In this document: positions 28,445 to 38,994 of the stretch, piece after piece
Position numbering within the stretch: the stretch's first letter is position 1
How the letters are laid out: each line of letters opens with the position of its first letter
DNA from: Desulfuromonas sp.
GTDB lineage: Bacteria > Desulfobacterota > Desulfuromonadia > Desulfuromonadales > BM501
NCBI RefSeq assembly: GCF_002868845.1
Contig: NZ_PKUB01000023.1
Coordinates: forward strand, 26,240-65,233
Direction: 5' to 3'
DNA: 38,994 nt
The notes under the pieces: model-generated
Told to the model about the DNA's origin: nothing
Seen by the model: only the letters and a program-made list of their open reading frames with translations
Databases searched by the model: none
Program-made: the position numbers and the translations under genes

Positions 28445-28473
28445 TTGAAATACCGCCGGCCATGGCATAAACT
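28445..28473 (+). promoter_or_regulatory. Sigma-70 type promoter for the three-gene cassette
   Basis: TTGAAA (28445-28450, five of six), a 17-bp spacer and TAAACT (28468-28473, four of six) predict a start about 28 bases before the ATG at 28508. It is the best plus-strand promoter in the 181-bp divergent gap with rlmKL. Confidence 0.65.
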
Positions 28474-28507: not shown

Positions 28508-29263
28508 ATGAAATACATCATGTACATCGTCTCCATCACCCTCCTCCTGACCCTGGGCATCTGGGGGTACGATTTCCTGAGCACCCCTTCCGCCCCACCG
28601 GACGGCGCGCTCGTCATCAATGACCGGGTCATCTCCCCCCCGGAACTGGAAATGAAGAAGAAATACTCTTCCTACCACCAAGGCAGCCAGGAGGAGTTCA
28701 TCGAAGGTGTCGTCACCCGCGAACTCCTCATTCAGGAAGCCCAGCGGGCCGGCATCGACCGCGAGGAGTCCTTTCGCCTGGCCATTCAGGACTTCTTCGA
28801 ACAATCCCTGATCAAAGTGCTGATGGATCGACAGTACCGGGACATGGAGGTCTCCGTCGGCCCCGAAGAACTGGAGGCATACCGCGACAACATCGGGAAG
28901 TTTTTTCACCTGACGGTTTTGAACTATCCGAGCGAGAAAGAAGCGATCGCGCAACGGGGGGAAAGACCGGAAGCAGTGCAGGAGTTTTTCGGCGACCTGC
29001 CCTGGCCGCTGCGGGACCGCCTGCTCCATTTGCAGCAGGGCCAGACCTCGGAGCCCTTCTCCCTGGGGGAGGAGTTCGTGCGGCTCAGACTGGACAAGGT
29101 CGAGCGGACCGAAGGACAGCAGGTCGAGCCGGACGGGGAGATGCTGCGGACGACCCTGCTCGAGGAGAAAAAAAGAAAAGCCATGGACTCGTGGCTGAAT
29201 GAACTGCGTCAGAAGGCGGCGATCACTCTGCCGGAAGCCATCAAAGATTTGGGGACGGACTAA
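28508..29263 (+). CDS. SurA/parvulin-like exported protein
   Basis: A 251-residue protein with one N-terminal membrane helix or uncleaved signal (about 4-22). Then comes an SurA-N-like helical segment (VINDRVISPPELEMKKKY, FIEGVVTRELLIQEAQRAGI, SFRLAIQDFFEQSLIKVLMDRQY). A shortened parvulin-type region (about 128-205) ends with LLHLQQGQTSEPFSLGEEFVRLRLDKVE. The catalytic parvulin residues are not evident, so it may act as a chaperone without prolyl isomerase activity. Similar proteins occur near exopolysaccharide loci. The ATG at 28508 follows GAGAGG. The stop overlaps the next start (TAATG). Confidence 0.75.
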   Translation: MKYIMYIVSITLLLTLGIWGYDFLSTPSAPPDGALVINDRVISPPELEMKKKYSSYHQGSQEEFIEGVVTRELLIQEAQRAGIDREESFRLAIQDFFEQSLIKVLMDRQYRDMEVSVGPEELEAYRDNIGKFFHLTVLNYPSEKEAIAQRGERPEAVQEFFGDLPWPLRDRLLHLQQGQTSEPFSLGEEFVRLRLDKVERTEGQQVEPDGEMLRTTLLEEKKRKAMDSWLNELRQKAAITLPEAIKDLGTD

Positions 29264-29865
29264 TGGCCAAAAAGTACCGCAGAAGAACCCGCAACTTCTT
29301 CATCAAGAAGGACATGCAGGGCAAACTCCTTTACCAGCATTTCCTCATGACCATTCTCGGCGTGATCGTTTTCGCCCTCATTTTCAGCCTGCTCTCGGCC
29401 GACAACCTGACCATCACCTATGAGAATCAACACATAAGGATCGGCCAGACCCCGCTCATCCTGCTCAAAGAGATGCTGAAGGCGCACTGGATCTTTCTGA
29501 TGACGGTCGGCCTGCTGGTCCTGGCGATGAACCTCATCCTGTACCACCGCTTCGCCGGGCCCGCCTATCGCTTTGAAATGACTTTTGGCGGTATGGTCAG
29601 CAAGGATCTCGACCAGCACATCTACCTGCGCTCCAAAGACATGATGAAGGAGCTGGCCGAACAGATCAACACCTTCAACCAGGACCTCTCGGACGAGATG
29701 CGCACAATCCGCCGCCATTGCGAAGCGGTCGAGGACCGCCTGGACCGCCTGGAGCCGGACACGAAAAATGCCCAGGCGACGGAGATGCTCAACCAGGCCA
29801 GGGAAGAAAACCGCCAGATCCAGAACCTTCTGGCAGCATACAAGCTGAAATCTGCGGACAAATGA
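29263..29865 (+). CDS. Two-helix membrane protein with HAMP-like segment
   Basis: A 200-residue protein. A basic N-terminus (KKYRRRTR) precedes two membrane helices (about 27-45 and 75-95) that bracket a small periplasmic loop. After the second helix comes HRFAGPAYRFEMTF and LRSKDMMKELAEQINTFNQDL, the pattern of a HAMP domain, and then a coiled coil to the end. There is no methyl-accepting, kinase or cyclase domain, so it is a sensor or scaffold stub, not a chemoreceptor. Its ATG overlaps the previous stop and its TGA overlaps the next ATG, so the three genes are translationally coupled. Confidence 0.72.
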   Translation: MAKKYRRRTRNFFIKKDMQGKLLYQHFLMTILGVIVFALIFSLLSADNLTITYENQHIRIGQTPLILLKEMLKAHWIFLMTVGLLVLAMNLILYHRFAGPAYRFEMTFGGMVSKDLDQHIYLRSKDMMKELAEQINTFNQDLSDEMRTIRRHCEAVEDRLDRLEPDTKNAQATEMLNQAREENRQIQNLLAAYKLKSADK

Positions 29866-30392
29866 TGAGAGCCGCCCGGCTTGCCTTGGCGACCCTCCTT
29901 TGTGTCGCCCTGGCAACCAACGCATTCGGTCTGGAGCTCAAGACCCGCTTCGCCACCGTCGAATACGAACGGCCGGAAGACCTCAGAACGTTCAACAAGA
30001 AGCTGCGACTGGGGTCCTTTTCCTTCCTGTTCGGCAAAAGAAACCAGCTCACCGTCGAGGAGGAGGTCGGCAGCAAGGTCGACAAGCTCAACGGAAGGGT
30101 CCAGGAGATCCTGGAGATGTTTCCCCGCCGACTGCGCTACAAGATCGTGCTGGTCCCCTCAAGGGGCGAGGTGCAGCAGGTCTACCGGCGGCAGTACGGG
30201 ACCAATGTGGACTTTATCGCCTTCTACGCGCCGGAGACCGACACGGTCTACGTGTCGGTCTCCGATATCAAGCTCACAGTCCTCGCCCACGAGCTGGCCC
30301 ACGTCGTCATCAACCACTACTTTGAAAACGCCCCCCCCGTCAAGATCCACGAAGTCCTCGCCCAATACGTGGAAGCGCAAATGGAATTGTAA
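29862..30392 (+). CDS. Secreted gluzincin-type metallopeptidase
   Basis: A 176-residue exported protein with a signal peptide (about 1-23, ending TNAFG). The C-terminus carries H143ELAH147, the zinc-binding HExxH, and 17 residues later HE164VLAQYVE, the third ligand pattern of peptidase MA-type gluzincins. The middle region (about 55-125) holds the strand-rich lead-in (RYKIVLVPSRGEVQQVY, FIAFYAPETDTVYVSV). It is short for the class and ends soon after the third ligand. The start codon at 29862 overlaps the previous stop; 29865 is also possible. The gene ends 6 bp from the convergent wzy-like stop with no terminator between. Confidence 0.78.
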   Translation: MMRAARLALATLLCVALATNAFGLELKTRFATVEYERPEDLRTFNKKLRLGSFSFLFGKRNQLTVEEEVGSKVDKLNGRVQEILEMFPRRLRYKIVLVPSRGEVQQVYRRQYGTNVDFIAFYAPETDTVYVSVSDIKLTVLAHELAHVVINHYFENAPPVKIHEVLAQYVEAQMEL

Positions 30393-30398
30393 ACGCCC

Positions 30399-32756
30399 TT
30401 ACCCTCCCCCCTCGGTCAGGATTTCCAGACGCTTGCGCACCCAGCCCTTCCCGGGGTCTAGAAGCAAAGATTTCCGGTACTCCTCGATGGCCCGGTAGGT
30501 AACCCCCAGTCGCTCGTAGAGGAAACCGGCCTCGCGCCTGAAACCGGGATCCCTCGGGAACAGTTCTATTCCCTGCTGTATCGCCTGAAGCGCTTCCTCC
30601 GTTCTTCCCCGATCGAAATAAAACTTTTTCAAATGCCAGAATGGCGCGGTACTTGGGGATTCCCCCTCGGTGCAAAACGGGATCGCCCTTCGGTATGTTC
30701 TTTCCCCCCGAGAGTCGAATCCAAGGTCCAAAAGGTAATCTCCAAAAGCGATTTGGGCTTGGCAAAGGGGGGGCAGAGCGGAGTCGATCGACTCGGCGTC
30801 GAACCCGTACAGAGCCAGCAGGGTAAGATAATCCCTTGAGCGCCTGGGGTCCCAGGTCATAGCCGTTCGCACCTGGCCCAGGCCCTCTTCCCAGTGGCCA
30901 TGAGAAAAGAGCCAGGAAGCGTACACCTTGCGTAATTCCGGATTTGAGGCATTGTTCTCCACCCCGGACCGAAGAAGTCTTTTCCCCTTTTCTTCCTCCC
31001 CCCAAAGCTCCAGGAGGAGCCCGAGTTTCTGCGCAACTTCACCATTGGTCGGATCAAGACGCAGGGCCGCCGTTAGATATTCCAGGGCCTGCGCCCTGTC
31101 TTCTACAGCAAGACTCAAGTCCGCAAGGATGAAAGGGACTTGCGGCGAGAGAGGATCAAGGTTTCTGGCGAGCTTGCCCTGTTCCAGAGCCGCCGTGATG
31201 TTCTTCGGTTCGGTTTGCGACAAGGAATCCAATCGGTCAAAAGACCTCATGCAGACGGCGGACAGGGCAGCGCCGCCATAGAACACCCCCCCGATGAGCG
31301 CCGTCACCCCGAGCAGGACGAAAGTCCTGGACAGGCGCCTGGCAAGCATGACGCTCAGGTTCGTCTTTCGACGACTCTTGGGGGAGCGGGAAGCGGCCGC
31401 GGAAGCAACCAGGCCCAGGAGAAAGAAAAAATAGAGCCCGTTGGCCCCAATGTGCAGGTTGAAATCGGTAACGCTATGAAACAAAATCGAGAGAAGGCCG
31501 GCCAAACCGCCAAGGAACAGGTAGATAGACGTTCGATTGCGCCGCTTGGAAAATTTCCGGTAACTCGCCGAAACCACCGCGAACAGAAACCACACCACCA
31601 GCCCTGTCCCTGCAATGCCCCCTTCCACCAGCAACTCGATGTAATCGTTGTGGGCATGGTCAACCATCAAACCATGGGTGTAAACGCTCTGGTACCGGGG
31701 GTAGATGTGGGCGAAGGTGCCGAACCCCGTCCCGAAAAGGGGGAAGTCCTGAATAACATCGCGGCTGTCCTCCCAATAATCGAGCCGCTGGTCGGCGATC
31801 TCCCCCCCCGAGGTCCGGATCCCCTCGAAGCGGTCAAATATTGGCCCCCACCCAAGGAAACCTACCGCCAACAGCATGGCAACCATGAAAAGGACCAGCT
31901 GCCTTCCTTTTTTTCGGTCCTTTCCGTGTTTCATGGCCAAAAACCCGAGGGCCAAAAGAGCGATCAGGATGCTGAATATCCCTCCCCGGGAAAGGCTCAA
32001 GAAAATCGAGGTTGAAATAAGGATCGCGGAAAAACCGAGGAGGATATGGGTATTGGCCCGAGGGTGGTTAAAGAACTCAGCAATCTTTTCGCGCAGCGAA
32101 TGGTAGCTGTATTCGGGCTGAGCGGACAAAAACATGGCCAGGACAACCGGAAGGATCATCTCCATGAGACCGGCATAATGGTTCCCGTTCACATAGGTCC
32201 CGAAGTGGTGCGAGGTCCGCGCTGGCCAGTCCCTGACAATCCACAGGATTCTGTCGTTTGGAAGGAGGAACTGAAGGATGCCGACAAAAGCGAATCCCCC
32301 CCCGAACAGAGCCAGAAAGACCGGGATTTTTTTGAGTGTCTTCCGATCGACGAGGAGTTGAACGGTCAAAAGGAAAAACGCTCCGTACCCGGCCACCCTG
32401 AGAAACTCTGCCAGGGTGGCCCTCGGCGCCAGGGAGACCGGCATCCAGACGCCGGGCCGTACGACCCAAACCGTTTCGCTATAAAGCTTCCATGTGTGCG
32501 GAGAGAGCAGGTGAAGAAGGAGGGGTGGCAGGGGAATCGCCTGGCAAAAAACATAGGCCAGAAATAGAGCCAGGGGGAGCATCCCGGGCGGGGAGTAAAC
32601 GGGAAGTTCCTTCCGGCGAGCCTCCCGCAAAGAGAGCCAAAGCGCCGCCACGCTCCCGCCCCCCACAAGAGCCAGGGACCATGTTTCGGTGGCGCCAAAG
32701 GCAAGGGGGGAAAAAACCAGAAGAGCAAAAAATAGTCGACGGGGCAGATCAGTCAT
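30399..32756 (-). CDS. Wzy/O-antigen ligase-type membrane protein with C-terminal TPR
   Basis: A 785-residue inner-membrane protein. About eleven or twelve membrane helices span residues 5-505. The Wzy_C/O-antigen ligase hallmark lies in the large periplasmic loop (GTGFGTFAHIYPRY, HAHNDYIELLVEGG). Residues about 540-780 are TPR-like repeats (AQALEYLTAALRLDPTNGEVAQKLG, TEEALQAIQQGIELFPRDPGFRREAG, AIEEYRKSLLLDPGKGWVRK). It would polymerise or ligate undecaprenyl-linked sugar units; the two roles cannot be separated by sequence. The ATG at 32756 overlaps the stop of the phosphatase gene by 8 bp. Confidence 0.85.
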   Translation of the reverse strand: MTDLPRRLFFALLVFSPLAFGATETWSLALVGGGSVAALWLSLREARRKELPVYSPPGMLPLALFLAYVFCQAIPLPPLLLHLLSPHTWKLYSETVWVVRPGVWMPVSLAPRATLAEFLRVAGYGAFFLLTVQLLVDRKTLKKIPVFLALFGGGFAFVGILQFLLPNDRILWIVRDWPARTSHHFGTYVNGNHYAGLMEMILPVVLAMFLSAQPEYSYHSLREKIAEFFNHPRANTHILLGFSAILISTSIFLSLSRGGIFSILIALLALGFLAMKHGKDRKKGRQLVLFMVAMLLAVGFLGWGPIFDRFEGIRTSGGEIADQRLDYWEDSRDVIQDFPLFGTGFGTFAHIYPRYQSVYTHGLMVDHAHNDYIELLVEGGIAGTGLVVWFLFAVVSASYRKFSKRRNRTSIYLFLGGLAGLLSILFHSVTDFNLHIGANGLYFFFLLGLVASAAASRSPKSRRKTNLSVMLARRLSRTFVLLGVTALIGGVFYGGAALSAVCMRSFDRLDSLSQTEPKNITAALEQGKLARNLDPLSPQVPFILADLSLAVEDRAQALEYLTAALRLDPTNGEVAQKLGLLLELWGEEEKGKRLLRSGVENNASNPELRKVYASWLFSHGHWEEGLGQVRTAMTWDPRRSRDYLTLLALYGFDAESIDSALPPLCQAQIAFGDYLLDLGFDSRGERTYRRAIPFCTEGESPSTAPFWHLKKFYFDRGRTEEALQAIQQGIELFPRDPGFRREAGFLYERLGVTYRAIEEYRKSLLLDPGKGWVRKRLEILTEGGG

Positions 32757-33453
32757 GAATCGGTTTGTTGGACATCACCGCGGCGGGGTTTGTCGTCACG
32801 AGCCTGCGCGCAGAGGGCTCCCCGACTATTTTTGCTGCGGCCTTCACCCCTTTGGAAAGGATCGGGGGCCGGGAACCGGGAGAATGGGCATCGCTGGCGA
32901 GGATATGAACCGCATGGTTCTTCAGAAGGTATTGGGCGCATTTTTTGACCTTTCGCCCGAATCCTCCGGTCAGGCTCTCGGCAGTGACCTGGACAAAGGC
33001 ACCCGCTTCGGCAAGATTGATGAGAAGTTGCGGTTTGGCAATGATGGACGGATTTCGTTCCGGATGGGTAATGATGGGAAGCAGGCCGGCCAGCTGGATG
33101 CGGTAAATCATGTCTCTGGCATTGTGAGGCAAGTGGGTGTAGGGGAATTCGAGCAGGACATAATCGGTGCCGTTGATGGTATGCCCTTTGAGGGTATCGA
33201 CATCGAGCAGGGCGCTGTTGTCGCCCCCCGGGGAAATCTCCAGCGGGATGCCCGCATCCTGCAATGCTGATCGGAACCGGTTCACGCGATCCCGGATGTC
33301 TTCCGGATCGTGGATCACCTCCCGCACGTGAGGGGTCGCGACGATGTGCTCTATCCCGTCGGCCACAGCCATCCGCGCCATCTCCAGCGATTCCTCAAGG
33401 GTAGAGGGGCCATCGTCGATGTCGTGCAAAATATGGCAGTGCAGATCAATCAT
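32749..33453 (-). CDS. CpsB/CapC-type tyrosine-protein phosphatase (PHP fold)
   Basis: A 234-residue metal-dependent phosphatase of the PHP superfamily. Metal ligands are visible in DLHCHILHDIDDGP at the N-terminus, the ATPH and THPERN motifs in the middle, and SDAH near the C-terminus. In Gram-positive capsule loci this family removes phosphates from the tyrosine-rich tail of the Wzc-like kinase, and the kinase next to it here has such a tail. Start choice is uncertain: the ATG at 33453 gives the family-typical MIDLHCH; an ATG five codons upstream (33468) is possible. Neither has a strong ribosome site. Confidence 0.9.
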   Translation of the reverse strand: MIDLHCHILHDIDDGPSTLEESLEMARMAVADGIEHIVATPHVREVIHDPEDIRDRVNRFRSALQDAGIPLEISPGGDNSALLDVDTLKGHTINGTDYVLLEFPYTHLPHNARDMIYRIQLAGLLPIITHPERNPSIIAKPQLLINLAEAGAFVQVTAESLTGGFGRKVKKCAQYLLKNHAVHILASDAHSPGSRPPILSKGVKAAAKIVGEPSARRLVTTNPAAVMSNKPIHD

Positions 33454-33597
33454 CAAGCAAACCGGCATTCACGGTGGGGTTAAATATCAAGCCTTGTCTG
33501 GCAGGGCCCCATCTCGCAGGCCAGGCCGCCCATCAGGAAATATCCCGTAGGGTTTCAGCCCCTTTCGGAGCGAGGTGGCGCACCAACCTCTGCCGGG

Positions 33598-33619
33598 AGA
33601 AAAAAACAGAATTCCTGTT
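33598..33619 (-). terminator. Weak terminator-like hairpin between kinase and phosphatase genes
   Basis: On the minus strand AACAG, GAATT loop and CTGTT are followed by a run of T, 27 bp past the kinase stop. The stem is only five AT-rich pairs, so it could reduce but not abolish read-through into the phosphatase gene. Confidence 0.35.
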
Positions 33620-33645
33620 CAAACTCAGCGACAAGGAACAGTCGT

Positions 33646-35862
33646 CTAGGCGGCCTCTTCCTGGGGCTTTTCCTCCTTGTACGCGGAATAATAGTACTGG
33701 TAGTAGTTGTAATAATAGTAGTCACTCTTTTCCAGGTTAAGAGCGTTGATCACCACCCCAAGCACGGTAGAGTTGACGTCCCGAAGTCCCTTCAGGGCCT
33801 TGCGCGCCATCTCGTAGGTGGTCTGGCGGGCCTTGGTCACCACAATCACACCGTCGCAGACGCGACTCAGGATCCGCGCATCGGCAACAGACAAAAGTGG
33901 CGGAGTGTCGCAGATGATAATGTCAAAACTCTCCTGCAGGGTGTCGAGCAATTTCTGCATCCGGGCTGAGGTGAGCAGTTCAGAAGGGTTCGGCGGAATC
34001 GGTCCTGAACTCATAAGGGTAAGATTGGGGATGGGGCCTTCCTGCAAAAAGCCTCCAGCCGAAACACCGGCCAGATAGGTGCTCAGACCGCTCTTGTTGC
34101 TCAGGCCGAACACCTTGTGCATACGTGGCTTGCGCAGGTCGCAGTCGATCAGGAGGACCCGCTTTTCCGACTGAGCCAGGGAGAGAGCCAAGTTGCATGA
34201 AGTCGTGGTCTTTCCCGCCCCCGCCTCGGAACTGGTCACGAGAATCTTTCGCGGCGGAGCGTCCGCGGCCGACAGGAGAACCCCTGTCCGCAGGGCCTTG
34301 TAGCTTTCGGCCAAGGGGGAGAGGGGCTCCTTCAGAACGACCTCCTCCACGTTCTGGTTTTCAGTCTTGTGAAACATGATCAAGCCGAGGACAGGGGTAT
34401 CGAGCTGACTCTCGGTTTCCTCCGGATACTTGACGGTGTTGTCCAGGTAGTCGATGAAAAACGCCAACCCGACGCCGCCGAACAGCCCGACGAGAATCCC
34501 CAGGAGAATGTTCCTGGTTTTGCGGGGGCTGATGGGGTAGGTCGGAACGGAAGCCTCCTCGACTATCCAGAGGTTGACCGGCTGGGTCTCCCCGGTAATA
34601 CTCTGCTCCTTCATTTTCACCAGCAGGGCATCGAACAACTGGCGGTTGGTATCGATCTCCCTTTTCAAGACCCCGTACTGGATGAACTTCTCGTTCAAAT
34701 TGAGGGCTTCGGCCTTGGTTTTTTTCATCTGGTCCAGAAGGTTGTTCTCGAAAGAGAGAGCCAACTCATACTCGTTCCTCATCCCCGCGATGAGCCGGGT
34801 TACGATCTGACGTTTTTTATTCTTGAGGACTTCGAGATCATTGGCGGCTTTGATCATGGAGGGGTGCTTCCGGCCATATTTCCCGGACAGTTCCATCGCG
34901 TGCTGCTCGGCCTTGATGATCTGTTCGCGCAGGGTCTGCAGGCCCTTATCCTCGGCGATACGGGGAATGGTCTCGGCGGCATCGGGATCATTGGAAACCT
35001 TCCGGGCCTTATAATACGAAGCCTCCAGGTTTTCCCTGTTGGCCTCGGCCCGGATCAGTTCGGTCCCGATCTGGGAAAGTTTTTGGGGGAGGACCGCAAT
35101 CCGGTCCTCAAGAGTCACCAGATCGTTCGCCCGCATGTAGTCCTGAAGGTCTATCTCGGTTTTTTCGAGCTTTTGGCGCTCCTCATCGGCCTTCTTAGTC
35201 ATCCAGTCCAGAGAGCGGCGCGTCGATTCCATCTTCATCTCGATGGTCTCCTCGATATAGGCCTCCGCCACCGAATTGGCGATCAGTGCCGCAAACTGAG
35301 GATTCGTCGAAACATAGCTGATATCGACGATACGGCTTTCCTCGACGGGACTGACACTGATTCCCCCACTGATCATGGAAGCCAACCCGTCCGCCAGGGA
35401 CCTCCCCGACCCCGCTTCGGTTTCCTCTTCAGCACTCTCGGACGCAGTCCGCCCTAAACCAAGGGTCTTGAAAACAATGGTTTTAACCTCCCGAAACCAG
35501 TTTCCGACCCCCTGCAGCAGGGAGGAATTCTCCTCGGCTCCCCCCATGTACGAATCCCAGGTCTCCTCAAGCTTCAACTTGTCAACGACCCGACGGCCAA
35601 CTCCCTGGCTTTGAATCAGTTGAAACTGGGTCTCGTAGTATTCGGGATCCCAGGAGTTGTACCGATAGGCGTCAACCAGCTCACTGGGAGCCACCTTTTC
35701 GATCATGACCTTCGTCGTCCCCGAATAAAGAGGGGTGGCGCTGAAGGTTCTGAGCAGGGTCAGTGCAAGTACGACGATCAGAACCATGACCACGGTTCCG
35801 CGCCGTTTGTTGATGATACGCAGGTAATCCCTTAAATGGATTTCCTCTTCTTTAGTATTCAT
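33646..35862 (-). CDS. Wzc-type chain-length determinant / bacterial tyrosine kinase
   Basis: A 738-residue inner-membrane protein. Two membrane helices (about 25-43 and 447-468) bracket a periplasmic Wzz region with long coiled coil. The cytoplasmic kinase domain has SSEAGAGKTTTSCN (Walker A), VLLIDCDLRKPRMHKVFG (Walker A') and IIICDTPPLL (Walker B), as in BY-kinases. The C-terminus carries a tyrosine cluster, ten Tyr within residues 715-728. Autophosphorylation of such tails controls oligomerisation and polymer length. It follows the Wza-like gene by 68 bp and precedes a CpsB-type phosphatase, forming the usual regulatory triad. The ATG at 35862 begins MNTKEEEIHLRDYL, typical of the family. 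Confidence 0.93.
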   Translation of the reverse strand: MNTKEEEIHLRDYLRIINKRRGTVVMVLIVVLALTLLRTFSATPLYSGTTKVMIEKVAPSELVDAYRYNSWDPEYYETQFQLIQSQGVGRRVVDKLKLEETWDSYMGGAEENSSLLQGVGNWFREVKTIVFKTLGLGRTASESAEEETEAGSGRSLADGLASMISGGISVSPVEESRIVDISYVSTNPQFAALIANSVAEAYIEETIEMKMESTRRSLDWMTKKADEERQKLEKTEIDLQDYMRANDLVTLEDRIAVLPQKLSQIGTELIRAEANRENLEASYYKARKVSNDPDAAETIPRIAEDKGLQTLREQIIKAEQHAMELSGKYGRKHPSMIKAANDLEVLKNKKRQIVTRLIAGMRNEYELALSFENNLLDQMKKTKAEALNLNEKFIQYGVLKREIDTNRQLFDALLVKMKEQSITGETQPVNLWIVEEASVPTYPISPRKTRNILLGILVGLFGGVGLAFFIDYLDNTVKYPEETESQLDTPVLGLIMFHKTENQNVEEVVLKEPLSPLAESYKALRTGVLLSAADAPPRKILVTSSEAGAGKTTTSCNLALSLAQSEKRVLLIDCDLRKPRMHKVFGLSNKSGLSTYLAGVSAGGFLQEGPIPNLTLMSSGPIPPNPSELLTSARMQKLLDTLQESFDIIICDTPPLLSVADARILSRVCDGVIVVTKARQTTYEMARKALKGLRDVNSTVLGVVINALNLEKSDYYYYNYYQYYYSAYKEEKPQEEAA

Positions 35863-35930
35863 GGGGATTTATCCTGAGCTGAGTCAAACAAGAAAAGACC
35901 GGAAAAGATCGAGAAAACAGCAATCAAATC

Positions 35931-36722
35931 CTAGAAGAAACTTTCGGGAACGACTATCACATCATCGGGAAGAATCTGTTCGTCCATGGGGGTCCTCTCC
36001 ATGATCCGCTCCTGCCCGTCGATCACGCGGATCACCTTGATCCGCCCCTTGGAAGCGATTTGAGTAAACCCTCCAGCCATGGAAATCGCCTTAATGACCG
36101 TGGTCCCCTCTTCAAGCTTGTAGGCGTCCGGCTTTTTCACTTCACCGGTAACATAGAACATTCCCGCCTTGGCGATAAAAACATTGTCCCCGTCCAGAAT
36201 GAACACGTCCTTCGACGTATCCCCTCGCTCCAGGAGATCTTTCAGGTTGACCCTGGTTACTTCCTCTACTGGAGCGCCCTTATGGCGGATGGTCAATTCA
36301 TCCCCTGCATCCTCGTTGAGCCCGCCGGCCTTTGAAATCAGCTCCAGAAGGGTGGTCGCCCCGCTCAGTTCGTAGAGGCCGGGGTTGTTCACATGACCCA
36401 TGATGACCACTTTTTTACTGCGGAACTCCTCGACAAAGACCGAAACCTGGGGATTGACGATGTACCCGTCCGCCAGCTCCATCCCCACCTTCTGGGCGAC
36501 CTGGGAAACCGTCAGCCCGCCGATCTCCACCTGACCGATCAGGGGGAAAATTATCGCTCCGTCGCTGCTGACTCGGACGATGGTTGTCAAGTCAAGGTGG
36601 TCATAGACATTGACCTTGAGGACATCCCCTTCCCCCACCTGATAATCGGTGTCAACCGCCAGAAGGGGCTGAGCGTGGGTGAAGAGGAGCAGAAATGTTA
36701 GAAGCAAGACCAACCTGGTCAT
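35931..36722 (-). CDS. Wza-type polysaccharide export protein with SLBB domains
   Basis: A 263-residue exported protein with a signal peptide (about 1-22). A polysaccharide export (PES) domain follows: YQVGEGDVLKVNVYD, VSSDGAIIFPLIGQVEIGGLTVSQVAQKV. Two SLBB units come next, one near GHVNNPGLYELSGATTLLELI and the other near GEVKKPDAYKLEEGTTVIKAI. No lipobox Cys is present, unlike Escherichia coli Wza, and there is no obvious C-terminal amphipathic helix, so the outer-membrane pore may be formed with the neighbouring beta-barrel protein. It ends DDVIVVPESFF, the usual family ending. The ATG at 36722 has a modest ribosome site (AAAGGGA). Confidence 0.93.
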   Translation of the reverse strand: MTRLVLLLTFLLLFTHAQPLLAVDTDYQVGEGDVLKVNVYDHLDLTTIVRVSSDGAIIFPLIGQVEIGGLTVSQVAQKVGMELADGYIVNPQVSVFVEEFRSKKVVIMGHVNNPGLYELSGATTLLELISKAGGLNEDAGDELTIRHKGAPVEEVTRVNLKDLLERGDTSKDVFILDGDNVFIAKAGMFYVTGEVKKPDAYKLEEGTTVIKAISMAGGFTQIASKGRIKVIRVIDGQERIMERTPMDEQILPDDVIVVPESFF

Positions 36723-36781
36723 ATGGGTCGTCCCTTTCAGGGGCAGCGGCGGGGTGCGTCCCGAGTCTGGCGACAGGCGCG

Positions 36782-38143
36782 TTAAAGCGCTGTCGTCAGG
36801 CTAAGAAAAGTGGTGTTGTCCTTGTAGTCGAAAATATTGAAGTTGGAGTCCCTCAGGGTAAAGGTGTAACCAAGGCTTAGGGCGAGCCACTCCTGAAGAT
36901 CGTAACCGAGGGAGAAGCCCGCACTGTAATAGTCGTCCTTGCGGTCATCAATCTGGATGCCGTTGGTTTGGCCCCTGCCGCGGTAACTGTCCCGGACATA
37001 GTACAGGTTAACGGCACCGTTGAGTTTGGTCCTGATCTTCTGGGCATACCCCAGCTGGAGGCTGTCGGTGAAAATCTCCTTGTACTCGCCAACGTCGGTT
37101 TCGTTGGTTTTCCGGTAGGCCTGGATATATCCTGACGTCTTGGGAGAGAAGCGATGGTCGAACTGGAATTCCAGGAGAAAATCGTCACTGTCTTTTATCG
37201 TCGGGTCATCAAAATCCTTTTGCCCGTATCCCGCTTTGAACCTGCCACGGGACTTGGCGGACACATCCCATTGGACACCCCCGAAATAATGATGCTCCAC
37301 GCTGTCCGGAGAAAAATCCTGATCGTAAACCACGTCGACGAACTCGTACTCGAGGAAAAGTGAGGTCTTGGGCCGGACCTTGAAGAAGACGTAGCCGGAC
37401 ACCGCGGTATCATCGCGGTCCCGAAAGCCGTTGCGGGCGGCATTGTCATAGTTCAAGCTGAAAAGGGAGAAATCGGCCCGCACCCGGAGCTTTGAACTGA
37501 TCTGGTAATTGCCGAGGAGGCTGACGATGTTCGATTTGAACTCGTCCCGTTGGGATCCCACGTTGGTGGCATATTCATCGTGGTTTATTTCAAAGACATC
37601 GGCCAACTCCACGGTCAGGCCGCCCCGGAAGTTGTGCAACAGCATCCCCTCGGCCCGATGGTTGACCACATCCTCGCCGGGGAAGTTTTTGTGGAAATTG
37701 AATTCCGCACTATAGAGGGCATACGCCTGGCTTCTACGTTCTGCATCGGTTTTGAAGCGGCTGATTTCAAGGCCGCCGGGGGAGATGTTCTGGGTCGACA
37801 TCTGCAGCAGCTGCTGGCGGCTCGCAGGAAAGGCCAACCAAATGCCGGGGGTGATGGTGCCGACCCATTCGCTCTCTTCGCGTGGCGATGCGACTTCGTC
37901 CTCGTCGACATTGTAGAGGTTGTCCGTGTAATACCCGCCCACGGAGACGAAGGGATGGATGTACCCCCTCTCGCTTCCGAAGAGTTCCCTGGCCGTGGCC
38001 CTTTGCCCTAGAGGGGAGGTCTTGATGGAGATGGAGGAGCCATCAGAGCTGCCAGTGGCCTCACCCCACTCCTGGGCCATCGCCTTTCCATAGAACAGGG
38101 CGCAGAGCGCCAAAGACAGAACAAGCGCACATTTGATCTTCAC
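36782..38143 (-). CDS. Outer-membrane beta-barrel protein of an exopolysaccharide locus
   Basis: A 453-residue protein with a signal peptide (1-23, cleaved after AMA). The rest is strand after strand of alternating hydrophobic and polar residues ending in an aromatic or hydrophobic position (ARADFSLFSLNYDN-like, SLFLEYEFVDVVYDQ, LGYAQKIRTKLNGAVNLYYVRD, LALSLGYTFTLRDS) and finishing in LSLTTAL. This matches the beta-barrel proteins (BBP2-like) next to wza and wzc in many exopolysaccharide clusters. The start is a GTG at 38143 with GGGGG about nine bases upstream. It lies 59 bp before the Wza-like gene and is probably the first gene of the operon. Confidence 0.85.
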   Translation of the reverse strand: MKIKCALVLSLALCALFYGKAMAQEWGEATGSSDGSSISIKTSPLGQRATARELFGSERGYIHPFVSVGGYYTDNLYNVDEDEVASPREESEWVGTITPGIWLAFPASRQQLLQMSTQNISPGGLEISRFKTDAERRSQAYALYSAEFNFHKNFPGEDVVNHRAEGMLLHNFRGGLTVELADVFEINHDEYATNVGSQRDEFKSNIVSLLGNYQISSKLRVRADFSLFSLNYDNAARNGFRDRDDTAVSGYVFFKVRPKTSLFLEYEFVDVVYDQDFSPDSVEHHYFGGVQWDVSAKSRGRFKAGYGQKDFDDPTIKDSDDFLLEFQFDHRFSPKTSGYIQAYRKTNETDVGEYKEIFTDSLQLGYAQKIRTKLNGAVNLYYVRDSYRGRGQTNGIQIDDRKDDYYSAGFSLGYDLQEWLALSLGYTFTLRDSNFNIFDYKDNTTFLSLTTAL

Positions 38144-38357: not shown

Positions 38358-38994
38358 TTATTGCGGTGCCGAGGGGCTGACCGACCCGGCGGTGGCGCGG
38401 CCGCCGGGATTCCCCTGGATCAGAGACACGGGCGGCGCTTCATTCGCCGGAGTATATCCGAGTCCGGGCAACTGTTTCACCCCGAGAGCAGCGGCCACCA
38501 GTGCGGGCGGAGCCTCGCAGCAGGCCGAACTCACGGCATACTTGGCAACGGTCGGACTGGCGAGACCGGCATCAAGAGCCCCGGAAACCAGCTGTTTCAG
38601 GCTCAAACCTTTTTCCATCGCGGTCGTGAATATTTCACAAATGCAGTCGTTGTTCTTCATGTGCAATATTGTCTTGACAATTTCCTGATCCGACATGCCC
38701 ACATCCATGGCCTGATCAAGCAACGTCTGGAAATCCGTTGGCACGGTGCCACAGGCCTGGGCCGAATCGGACTCTGCGTTATTTGTCAGTTCAGCGGCAA
38801 CCTGCGGTGCGGCAACCTGCGGTGCGGCAACCTGCGGTGCGGCAACCTGCGGTGCGGCAACCTGCGGTGCGGCAACCTGCGGTGCGGCGACCTGCGGTGC
38901 GGCGACCTTCGGAGCGGCGGCCTGCGGTGCGGCGGCCTGCGGTGCGGCGGCCTGCGGTGCGGCGGCCTGCGGTGCGGCGGCCTGCGGTGCGGCG
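38358..38994 (-). CDS. Protein with Ala/Val-Ala-Ala-Pro-Gln repeats and a Cys-containing C-terminal part (partial)
   Basis: The frame is open from the right edge to the TAA at 38358, so the start is outside the window; 211 residues are visible. The first 64 or so are pentapeptide repeats AAAPQ or VAAPQ (one ends in K). After a short ELTNNAESDSAQ link comes a helical domain with repeated GMSDQEIV / GLSLKQLV / GLASPTVA-type segments and five cysteines (ACG, DCIC, ACC), then a Pro/Gly/Ser-rich end. I do not recognise the family. The Pro/Ala repeat resembles linkers that span the periplasm or wall. A GTG at 38744 would give a shorter protein without repeats, but the in-frame, stop-free repeat favours the long form. 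Confidence 0.7.
   Translation of the reverse strand, partial: AAPQAAAPQAAAPQAAAPQAAAPQAAAPKVAAPQVAAPQVAAPQVAAPQVAAPQVAAPQVAAPQVAAELTNNAESDSAQACGTVPTDFQTLLDQAMDVGMSDQEIVKTILHMKNNDCICEIFTTAMEKGLSLKQLVSGALDAGLASPTVAKYAVSSACCEAPPALVAAALGVKQLPGLGYTPANEAPPVSLIQGNPGGRATAGSVSPSAPQ
38801..38994. repeat. 15-bp tandem repeat (VNTR), 13 copies to the edge
   Basis: Twelve complete units and one of 14 bases of the form CCTGCGGTGCGGCRR run from 38801 to the right edge. The left copies end in AA, two middle ones in GA, the right ones in GG; the unit at 38906-38920 has two changes (CCTTCGGAGCGGC). Unit length is a multiple of three, so copy number can change without breaking the frame. Confidence 0.92.

What the first reader, a model, noticed from the sequence alone, without database searches (positions are those of the whole stretch)
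28508..30392. Three coupled genes: parvulin-like protein, HAMP-like membrane stub and secreted HExxH peptidase
These genes share one good promoter (28445-28473) and overlap at their ends (TAATG and ATGA), so they form one translation unit. The products would sit at the inner membrane and periplasm: a SurA-like protein without clear catalytic residues, a two-helix HAMP protein lacking any output domain, and a small gluzincin with HELAH and a downstream Glu. A membrane sensor, chaperone and protease made in fixed ratio next to an exopolysaccharide locus could be an envelope quality-control or signalling proteolysis module. I know of no named system with this trio.
Basis: partly seen in the sequence, partly recalled or inferred. 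Interest (0 to 1): 0.6.

Follow-up and report, generated by a model that had tools for sequence, protein, structure and literature searches.

The report
Conserved chaperone–HAMP–peptidase trio beside exopolysaccharide exporters
Three overlapping genes, encoding a folding helper without its usual enzyme residues, a bare membrane relay and a minimal zinc protease, travel together in fixed order through very different bacteria, mostly beside the machine that exports slimy surface sugar, so they look like an undescribed accessory kit for building the cell's outer coat.

Summary
At 28508-30392 a SurA/EpsD-like anchored chaperone, a two-helix HAMP protein without output domain and a secreted minimal gluzincin (HELAH-16-E) are overlapping genes. 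No Pfam or NCBIfam model reaches its cut-off for them. Of 56 peptidase-family genes examined, 42 follow the other two; in 38 of the 40 loci concerned the three are consecutive and in this order. Loci come from the window's phylum and from records titled Nitrospirae and Omnitrophota. EPS export genes lie nearby in 26 of 40 loci (20 of 33 outside the profile seeds), against 0 of 11 loci with only a HAMP paralogue. HExxH is in 42 of 42 trio peptidases; parvulin active-site histidines are not conserved. Four loci adjoin a giant-protein export cluster instead, and two extra peptidase copies follow cyclic-dinucleotide riboswitches. Best reading: a dedicated periplasmic chaperone-protease unit for surface-matrix exporters. 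The module is well supported; the mechanism is inferred. The EPS operon also occurs without the trio. The claimed promoter is no better than chance.

The parts
28445..28473 (+). sigma-70-like promoter consensus (TTGAAA-17-TAAACT), ending 34 nt before gene 1
   Evidence: 9 of 12 matches; not more than chance
28508..29263 (+). gene 1: membrane-anchored SurA/EpsD/PpiD-type chaperone with shrunken, probably non-catalytic parvulin domain (251 aa)
   Evidence: profile of 9 members hits SurA and HP_0175 in the PDB at E 2e-7 to 4e-7; Foldseek E 6e-7 to 6bhf; active-site His columns not conserved
29263..29865 (+). gene 2: two-helix membrane protein, short periplasmic loop, HAMP, coiled-coil-like tail, no output domain (200 aa); 1-nt overlap with gene 1
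29862..30392 (+). gene 3: secreted minimal gluzincin peptidase, HELAH (143-147) plus Glu164 near the C-terminus (176 aa); 4-nt overlap with gene 2
30399..32756 (-). linked partner: Wzy_C/O-antigen-ligase-like protein with C-terminal TPRs, convergent, 6-nt gap
   Evidence: Pfam; adjacency seen in many trio loci
32749..33468 (-). linked partner: CpsB/CapC phosphatase-like
   Evidence: Pfam PF19567 above cut-off
33646..35862 (-). linked partner: Wzc-type co-polymerase/tyrosine autokinase
   Evidence: Pfam; NCBIfam TIGR01007 above cut-off
35931..36722 (-). linked partner: Wza/EpsE-type export protein
   Evidence: Pfam Poly_export and SLBB; closest NCBIfam model EpsE, below cut-off
36782..38143 (-). 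linked partner: EpsL-like outer-membrane barrel (BBP2_2)
   Evidence: Pfam; NCBIfam EpsL below cut-off

Best explanation
A dedicated envelope chaperone-protease accessory of surface-matrix export machines. Gene 1 is a SurA-lineage holdase tethered to the inner membrane that receives a client emerging in the periplasm. Gene 3 is a periplasmic zinc peptidase that trims the client or removes it when assembly stalls. Gene 2 is a HAMP dimer that anchors the pair at the membrane and may gate the peptidase. The likeliest clients are protein parts of the neighbouring exporter (the EpsL barrel, Wza or an associated secreted protein); where the module sits beside a giant-protein cluster, the client would be that machine or the giant protein. 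Shown by computation: lineage and fold class of genes 1 and 3, HAMP nature of gene 2, conserved order, retained zinc motif, lost parvulin site, linkage to exporters. Inferred: that the three proteins bind each other, that the peptidase is active, and what it cuts.
For: Order chaperone-HAMP-peptidase as consecutive same-strand genes in 38 of 40 loci, the other 2 with one gene call between. In 136 same-order genomes, strong peptidase hits in 17 and strong chaperone hits in 16, 15 shared; the three unshared ones lie where the contig ends (G020, G122, G114). EPS export families in 26 of 40 trio loci, at least two families in 19, versus 0 of 11 HAMP-paralogue-only loci of 12-20 kb; outside the loci that seeded the profiles, 20 of 33. 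Pairwise distances of the three proteins correlate (r 0.81-0.89, 39 trios) and also correlate with EpsL, Wza, Wzc and Wzy-TPR (r 0.75-0.94, 14-19 loci). HExxH in 42 of 42 trio peptidases; third ligand Glu in 41 (one after a 1-residue insertion), Asp in 1. Chaperone: SurA, E 2.6e-7; of 15 columns checked around the two parvulin His positions none has more than 3 His in 32 long members. Peptidase model pLDDT 86.7; best VIA-align matches are lugdulysin M30 (Z 10.2, rmsd 4.0, 130 aligned), collagenase H (Z 9.0) and M1 enzymes (Z up to 8.7).
Against: The same EPS operon stands without the trio in G010, G085, G029, G019 and G003 (G081 too, but on a short contig), so the exporter does not need it. 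14 of 40 trio loci show no EPS export gene at E<1e-15; 9 of these stretches are 15-21 kb long. No client was identified. HAMP lies in the cytoplasm by predicted topology, so acting on a periplasmic protease needs signal passage through the helices. Overlap of genes 2 and 3 is rare. Distance correlations are not corrected for species descent. For the peptidase no Foldseek match is below E 0.001, and the top one is TM1509, a YbeY-type protein by recall, not a gluzincin; YbeY chains also reach Z 8.3.
Confidence: 0.45

Rival explanations
1. Signal-gated periplasmic proteolysis, working like LapD-LapG: a cytoplasmic cue (cyclic-dinucleotide status or a partner binding the HAMP/coiled coil) is passed outward through the two helices to release or restrain the peptidase, which then trims a surface adhesin or matrix protein to hold or shed the matrix.
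For: The Lap system pairs a HAMP membrane receptor with a periplasmic protease for surface adhesion (starts of abstracts of PMC4359373, PMC3032553 and PMC3032545 in listings; the HAMP in LapD is recalled). In G113 a c-di-GMP-I riboswitch (47.5 bits, cut-off 35) ends 45 nt before a second peptidase copy; in G110 a c-di-GMP-I-GGC aptamer (68.1 bits, cut-off 59) precedes the second copy. Four trio loci adjoin giant-protein export genes; in L128 the trio follows the HlyD-like gene by 22 nt on the same strand. Parts of the periplasmic loop of gene 2 are conserved.
Against: No cyclic-dinucleotide domain in the window proteins or the relatives scanned. Riboswitches were found at 2 of 40 trio loci, both before extra copies; none in the window. 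LapD has GGDEF/EAL domains and LapG is a cysteine protease (recalled); neither is here.
Confidence: 0.25
2. Maturation protease for one secreted matrix protein: the peptidase makes a specific cut in a co-exported protein (for instance the small secreted protein encoded upstream of epsL), with gene 1 as its chaperone.
For: Retained catalytic motif; small proteins of unknown family near epsL (L058 and L145, no Pfam match; the window's); tandem second peptidase genes in G110 and G113.
Against: I saw no single candidate substrate accompanying the trio in all contexts, and L145 has such a small gene without a trio.
Confidence: 0.15
3. Outside-in envelope-stress sensor: misfolded clients on gene 1 shift the HAMP protein, and the cytoplasmic coiled coil signals to a separate partner; the peptidase ends the signal.
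For: The HAMP and tail are predicted to face the cytoplasm (helices, orientation by the basic N-terminus); response-regulator genes lie near the trio in G171 (Pfam), and similar genes stand near it in the same-genus G516 (by eye).
Against: Among the other neighbourhoods whose gene lists I saw (in part, 61, 65) I noticed no kinase, cyclase or regulator that recurs next to the trio; most neighbours were not scanned for domains.
Confidence: 0.1
4. Hitchhiking: three unrelated envelope genes that happen to stay together.
For: Each protein alone resembles common envelope proteins.
Against: Fixed order in 38 of 40 loci at median pairwise identities of 24-31% and in different surroundings.
Confidence: 0.05

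Closest known systems
SurA / PpiD (periplasmic chaperones with parvulin domains)
   Same: SurA-lineage sequence and fold; like PpiD an N-terminal membrane helix and a parvulin-like domain without the active-site histidine (PpiD facts from passages of PMC9797188).
   Different: About 250 aa, one shrunken parvulin domain or, in a short subgroup, most of it missing; followed by a HAMP gene and a peptidase gene.
EpsD-family PPIase of EPS loci (TIGR02925)
   Same: The NCBIfam model hit by most members, 7 of 9 at E<=0.1, best 8e-4; EPS-locus context (EpsD context recalled).
   Different: The window protein does not hit it.
BepA and other M48 proteases of outer-membrane quality control
   Same: Secreted HExxH zinc peptidase acting, if the analogy holds, on stalled outer-membrane clients (BepA role: start of abstract of PMC8423444; passages of PMC9797188).
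   Different: Pfam M48 score 15.1 against cut-off 20.3; no TPR domain; the chain ends just after the third ligand.
Af1503 of Archaeoglobus fulgidus
   Same: Membrane protein ending in a HAMP domain without output domain (passages of PMC3585426).
   Different: Gene 2 has a further coiled-coil-like tail and is fixed in a three-gene module; relatedness beyond HAMP was not tested.
LapD-LapG system
   Same: HAMP membrane protein plus periplasmic protease tied to surface matrix (starts of abstracts in listings; HAMP recalled).
   Different: No GGDEF/EAL domains; zinc peptidase instead of LapG's cysteine protease (recalled).

Membership tests
SurA superfamily (gene 1) | SurA-type N-domain and parvulin-like domain recognisable by profile or fold | tested here: met
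   PDB profile hits to SurA and HP_0175 at E about 2e-7; Foldseek E 5.6e-7 to 6bhf. The single-sequence Pfam score stays below cut-off (19 vs 27.2) and VIA-align Z is at most 7.9.
Active parvulin PPIase (gene 1) | conserved active-site histidines in the parvulin domain (positions recalled) | tested here: not met
   15 columns around the two expected positions: at most 3 His of 32 long members.
EpsD family TIGR02925 (gene 1) | score above the curated cut-off | tested here: not met
   Window protein: no hit at E<=1. Seven of nine members hit weakly, best E 8e-4; their bit scores were not printed.
HAMP domain (gene 2) | HAMP profile after the second transmembrane helix | tested here: met
   Three of three relatives scanned score 25.7-37.8 bits against cut-off 25; they are tied to the window protein by alignment (L085) or profile (L131, L132). 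The window protein itself has no hit.
Gluzincin zinc peptidases (gene 3) | HExxH plus downstream Glu ligand in a gluzincin fold | tested here: met
   HExxH in 42 of 42, Glu in 41 and Asp in 1; model matches M30, M9 and M1 enzymes, Z 8.7-10.2. Foldseek alone is weak. Zinc binding not testable here.
Peptidase M48 (gene 3) | Pfam PF01435 above cut-off | tested here: not met
   15.1 vs 20.3 bits; 4 of 9 members hit, best E 0.022.
LapD-LapG | LapD with GGDEF/EAL and LapG cysteine protease (recalled) | tested here: not met
   No such domains in the three window proteins.
Wza/Wzc/EpsL exopolysaccharide export locus (neighbourhood) | Poly_export, Wzz/GNVR kinase, BBP2_2 barrel, CpsB and Wzy_C genes together | tested here: met
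   Window 30399-38143, all above Pfam cut-off.

The most novel reading that the evidence does not exclude
The output-less HAMP protein is the signature of a general, undescribed family of membrane gates for surface-polymer export: one branch, with chaperone and peptidase, serves polysaccharide and giant-protein exporters, in some species under cyclic-dinucleotide control, while paralogues serve multihaem-cytochrome operons (with a rotamase protein or a trypsin-like protease nearby) and pilin-like operons. Each system would pair a HAMP gate with its own folding helper or protease.
Probability: 0.25. Interest if true: 0.8.

Novelty: new variant of a known kind. Interest (0 to 1): 0.6.

Why it matters
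Exporters of bacterial surface matrix span the envelope, and how their protein parts are folded, checked and tuned is poorly known. A conserved three-gene kit that follows these exporters in deeply separated bacteria gives concrete targets for that question, offers a role for HAMP domains with no output domain, and hints at a shared principle for polysaccharide, adhesin and cytochrome-wire biogenesis.

Tried and rejected
Known-family filing: Pfam and NCBIfam scans of the three window proteins gave nothing above cut-off. Scans of nine-member alignments of the chaperone (NCBIfam) and the peptidase (Pfam) gave only weak hits. Rejected: that the linkage is an accident of the window. Rejected as evidence: the promoter. 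The PDB profile search with the peptidase gave one hit, 1zxj at E 0.043, which I do not trust.

Peptidase-family genes without the trio, 14 of 56: L063, L090 and L095 lie at contig ends; L130 and L131 each hold an extra copy without HExxH; L065, L066 and L135-L140 are weak hits (E 1e-14 to 1e-7) and look like another subfamily; L134 (G395, E 3e-24) is a full-length hit that lacks the other two beside it. In the phylum sample, 29 of 395 genomes have a hit; of 23 with E<1e-20, I count 22 with the trio, G279's interrupted by a transposase gene. Weak peptidase hits in G022 and G029 and weak chaperone hits in G097, G101 and G106 were left out of the 17/16/15 count.

Second context: an M50-HlyD protein from L128 hits 16 of 395 phylum genomes. 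I read loci around nine of its ten best places outside the L128 locus itself: all nine have GAF-HlyD and SecA-like genes, seven a HlyD gene, and none a chaperone, HAMP or peptidase of the trio. So the trio is optional there. L061/L091/L092 and L128 belong to different branches of the trio, which suggests that the link arose at least twice. In L091, L092 and L128 these neighbours were recognised by their beginnings and by the 57% identity of the M50-HlyD protein between L061 and L128, not by Pfam; no SecA-like gene is in the L128 stretch.

Second peptidase copies in L087 and L094 were counted as genes, not as loci. The chaperone of L088 is cut by its contig. VIA-align rows do not exclude families that are not listed.

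Literature: searches aimed at the trio or its parts in EPS loci listed no description of it; some searches looked for related systems. Only listings and passages were seen, and most subscription papers are not held.
Full report
What is there. The window carries three + strand genes at 28508-29263, 29263-29865 and 29862-30392, joined by a TAATG and an ATGATGA overlap. They stand convergent, with a 6-nt gap, to a minus-strand run of a Wzy_C/TPR protein, a CpsB-like phosphatase, a Wzc-type autokinase, a Wza-type exporter and an EpsL-like barrel (30399-38143). Each of the three proteins has one match at E<=0.001 in the window's own genome, itself.

Gene 1. Single-sequence Pfam matches are weak (SurA_N_3 E 0.0013, 19 bits against 27.2). 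A profile of nine members finds solved SurA and HP_0175 at E about 2e-7, and the AlphaFold model (pLDDT 84.3, pTM 0.60) matches the same family in Foldseek (6bhf, E 5.6e-7). Its residues about 127-201 superpose on parvulin domains (71 residues on 6xd8 and 75 on 3gpk, both 2.2 A, Z 6.8 and 6.7), though Z below 8 alone would mean little. The histidines expected in an active parvulin site (positions recalled) are not conserved: in 32 long members no column of 15 checked has more than 3 His. Nine further members are only 185-199 aa; for L085 the alignment shows most of this domain missing, for the others I judge by length. Five of them (L085, L128, L130, L131, L133) pass a simple lipobox pattern. 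So the conserved core seems to be the SurA-like chaperone part with a membrane or lipid anchor, not isomerase activity. The NCBIfam model hit by most members is EpsD (TIGR02925): 7 of 9, best E only 8e-4, and not by the window protein.

Gene 2. Two strong hydrophobic helices at 27-45 and 76-94 enclose a short loop. The part after the second helix corresponds to the stretch that passes the Pfam HAMP cut-off in three relatives (37.8, 31.1 and 25.7 bits against 25); the window protein has no HAMP hit of its own. Nothing but a coiled-coil-like tail follows. An N-terminal KRR-x-FI-x-K-xx-Q-like stretch is shared with many paralogues elsewhere. HAMP proteins without an output domain have a precedent in Af1503 (passages of PMC3585426).

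Gene 3. HELAH and the later Glu are invariant in the eight aligned same-order members. In 42 trio peptidases HExxH is present in all, and the third ligand is Glu in 41 (40 at the same spacing, one after a one-residue insertion) and Asp in one, L132. The model (pLDDT 86.7, pTM 0.79) gives VIA-align Z 10.2 (4.0 A, 130 residues) to lugdulysin, 9.0 (3.0 A, 126) to collagenase H and 8.7 (2.8 A, 115) to the M1 enzyme ERAP2. Against this, YbeY, a HExxH protein of another kind, also scores 8.3, the top Foldseek hit is TM1509 (a YbeY-type protein by recall), and no Foldseek E-value is below 0.001. The late Glu ligand decides me for a minimal gluzincin; it is not a member of M48 by score (15.1 bits against 20.3).

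Conservation of the trio. Neighbourhoods were called with a home-made caller and labelled with profiles. Of 56 peptidase-family genes, 42 have the HAMP and chaperone genes upstream on the same strand. These fall in 40 loci once second copies are set aside; 38 have the three as consecutive genes in the same order, and two (L121, L130) have one extra call between. In L121 the extra gene matches a DDE transposase. In the order-wide searches I count strong peptidase hits (E<1e-40) in 17 genomes and strong chaperone hits (E<1e-15) in 16, with 15 in common; G020, G122 and G114 differ because the contig ends there. Median pairwise identities are 31% (peptidase), 24% (chaperone) and 29% (HAMP), and the three distance matrices correlate at r 0.81-0.89 (39 trios). 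That last figure is not corrected for species descent.

Neighbourhood. At least one of EpsL, Wza, Wzc, CpsB or Wzy-TPR (E<1e-15) lies in the stretch read for 26 of 40 trio loci, and at least two for 19. The profiles were built on seed loci; outside these it is 20 of 33. Of the 11 loci read around HAMP paralogues without a trio (L067-L077, 12-20 kb), none has any, nor have nine loci with a lone peptidase relative (L065, L066, L134-L140). L122 and L133 have only weaker matches and are counted as lacking. Evidence the other way: the same EPS operon stands without the trio in G010, G085, G029, G019 and G003, so the trio is an accessory. A second context is a cluster with M50-HlyD fusion, GAF-HlyD and HlyD proteins. 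In L061 Pfam shows these plus a SecA-like ATPase and a long upstream gene with RTX repeats; L091 and L092 look the same by their beginnings, and L128, of another class, has the M50-HlyD protein at 57% identity with GAF-HlyD- and HlyD-like genes by eye, and the trio 22 nt behind on the same strand. Nine of nine further loci of that cluster lack the trio.

Regulation. Rfam finds a c-di-GMP-I aptamer ending 45 nt before the second peptidase copy of G113 (L087, 47.5 bits) and a c-di-GMP-I-GGC aptamer between the two peptidase copies of G110 (L094, 68.1 bits), there followed by a GC stem and a T-run like a terminator (my reading of the letters). These are 2 of 40 trio loci; the window has none. The EPS operon of G029, which lacks the trio, also starts behind a c-di-GMP-I aptamer (L145). 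Geobacter is rich in cGAMP-sensing relatives of this riboswitch (passages of PMC8835794). This ties extra copies of the peptidase to matrix signalling in two genomes, no more.

Paralogues of gene 2. HAMP relatives occur in 33 of 78 same-order genomes, the non-trio ones at 20-37% identity. They lie beside multihaem cytochromes and NHL proteins, in L067 also with a Rotamase_2 protein; on both sides of a cytochrome gene and followed by a trypsin-like protease in L069, with the same gene families in L070; and directly after a pilin-like gene in L072 (N_methyl), with the same family in L073 and L075. This suggests, without proving, that the family marks surface-polymer operons.

Mechanism. The parts list, a SurA-type holdase plus an HExxH peptidase at the membrane next to an outer-membrane exporter, most resembles outer-membrane protein quality control, where SurA and PpiD carry clients and BepA removes stalled ones (passages of PMC9797188; start of abstract of PMC8423444). 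I commit to a dedicated version of this for matrix exporters at 0.45. A LapD-LapG-like gate is the main rival at 0.25: it explains the HAMP better and fits the riboswitches and the giant-protein context, but no cyclic-dinucleotide domain is present. Shown: lineage, motifs, order and linkage. Inferred: binding, activity, client and direction of signalling.

Novelty. Four literature searches aimed at the trio or its parts in EPS loci and five for related systems listed no description of it in the held open-access library; I saw listings and passages only. Each part belongs to a known superfamily, so I rate it a new variant of a known kind, with the conserved, exporter-linked combination as the new point.

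Noticed in passing
L149-L157, L061, L091, L092, L128: A conserved cluster of GAF-HlyD, M50-HlyD fusion, SecA-like ATPase and often HlyD, beside long repeat-type genes and DUF3467-like genes (DUF3467 by Pfam in L091, elsewhere by eye), looks like a giant-protein export system; M50-HlyD hits in 16 of 395 phylum genomes; one paper search listed no description.
   Followed up: partly
L067-L077: Output-less HAMP paralogues sit in multihaem cytochrome, HAMP-cytochrome-HAMP-trypsin and pilin-HAMP gene runs of same-order genomes.
   Followed up: partly
L130 6371-6712 and L131 8357-8950: Extra peptidase-family genes without HExxH stand divergently beside the trio, possibly dead paralogues (the L130 one may be a short call).
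   Followed up: no
L087 10052-10131 and L094 10497-10584: Cyclic-dinucleotide riboswitches precede tandem second copies of the peptidase.
   Followed up: partly
L145 619-696; L067 7899-7982: c-di-GMP-I riboswitch upstream of a trio-less EPS export operon, and a c-di-GMP-I-GGC riboswitch in a cytochrome/HAMP locus.
   Followed up: no
L121 7394-8761: A DDE transposase gene lies between the chaperone gene and a shortened HAMP call, so this trio may be interrupted.
   Followed up: no
window 38358-38744: Small protein upstream of the EpsL gene, with no Pfam match; relatives near EpsL in L058-L060. A possible client of the trio.
   Followed up: no
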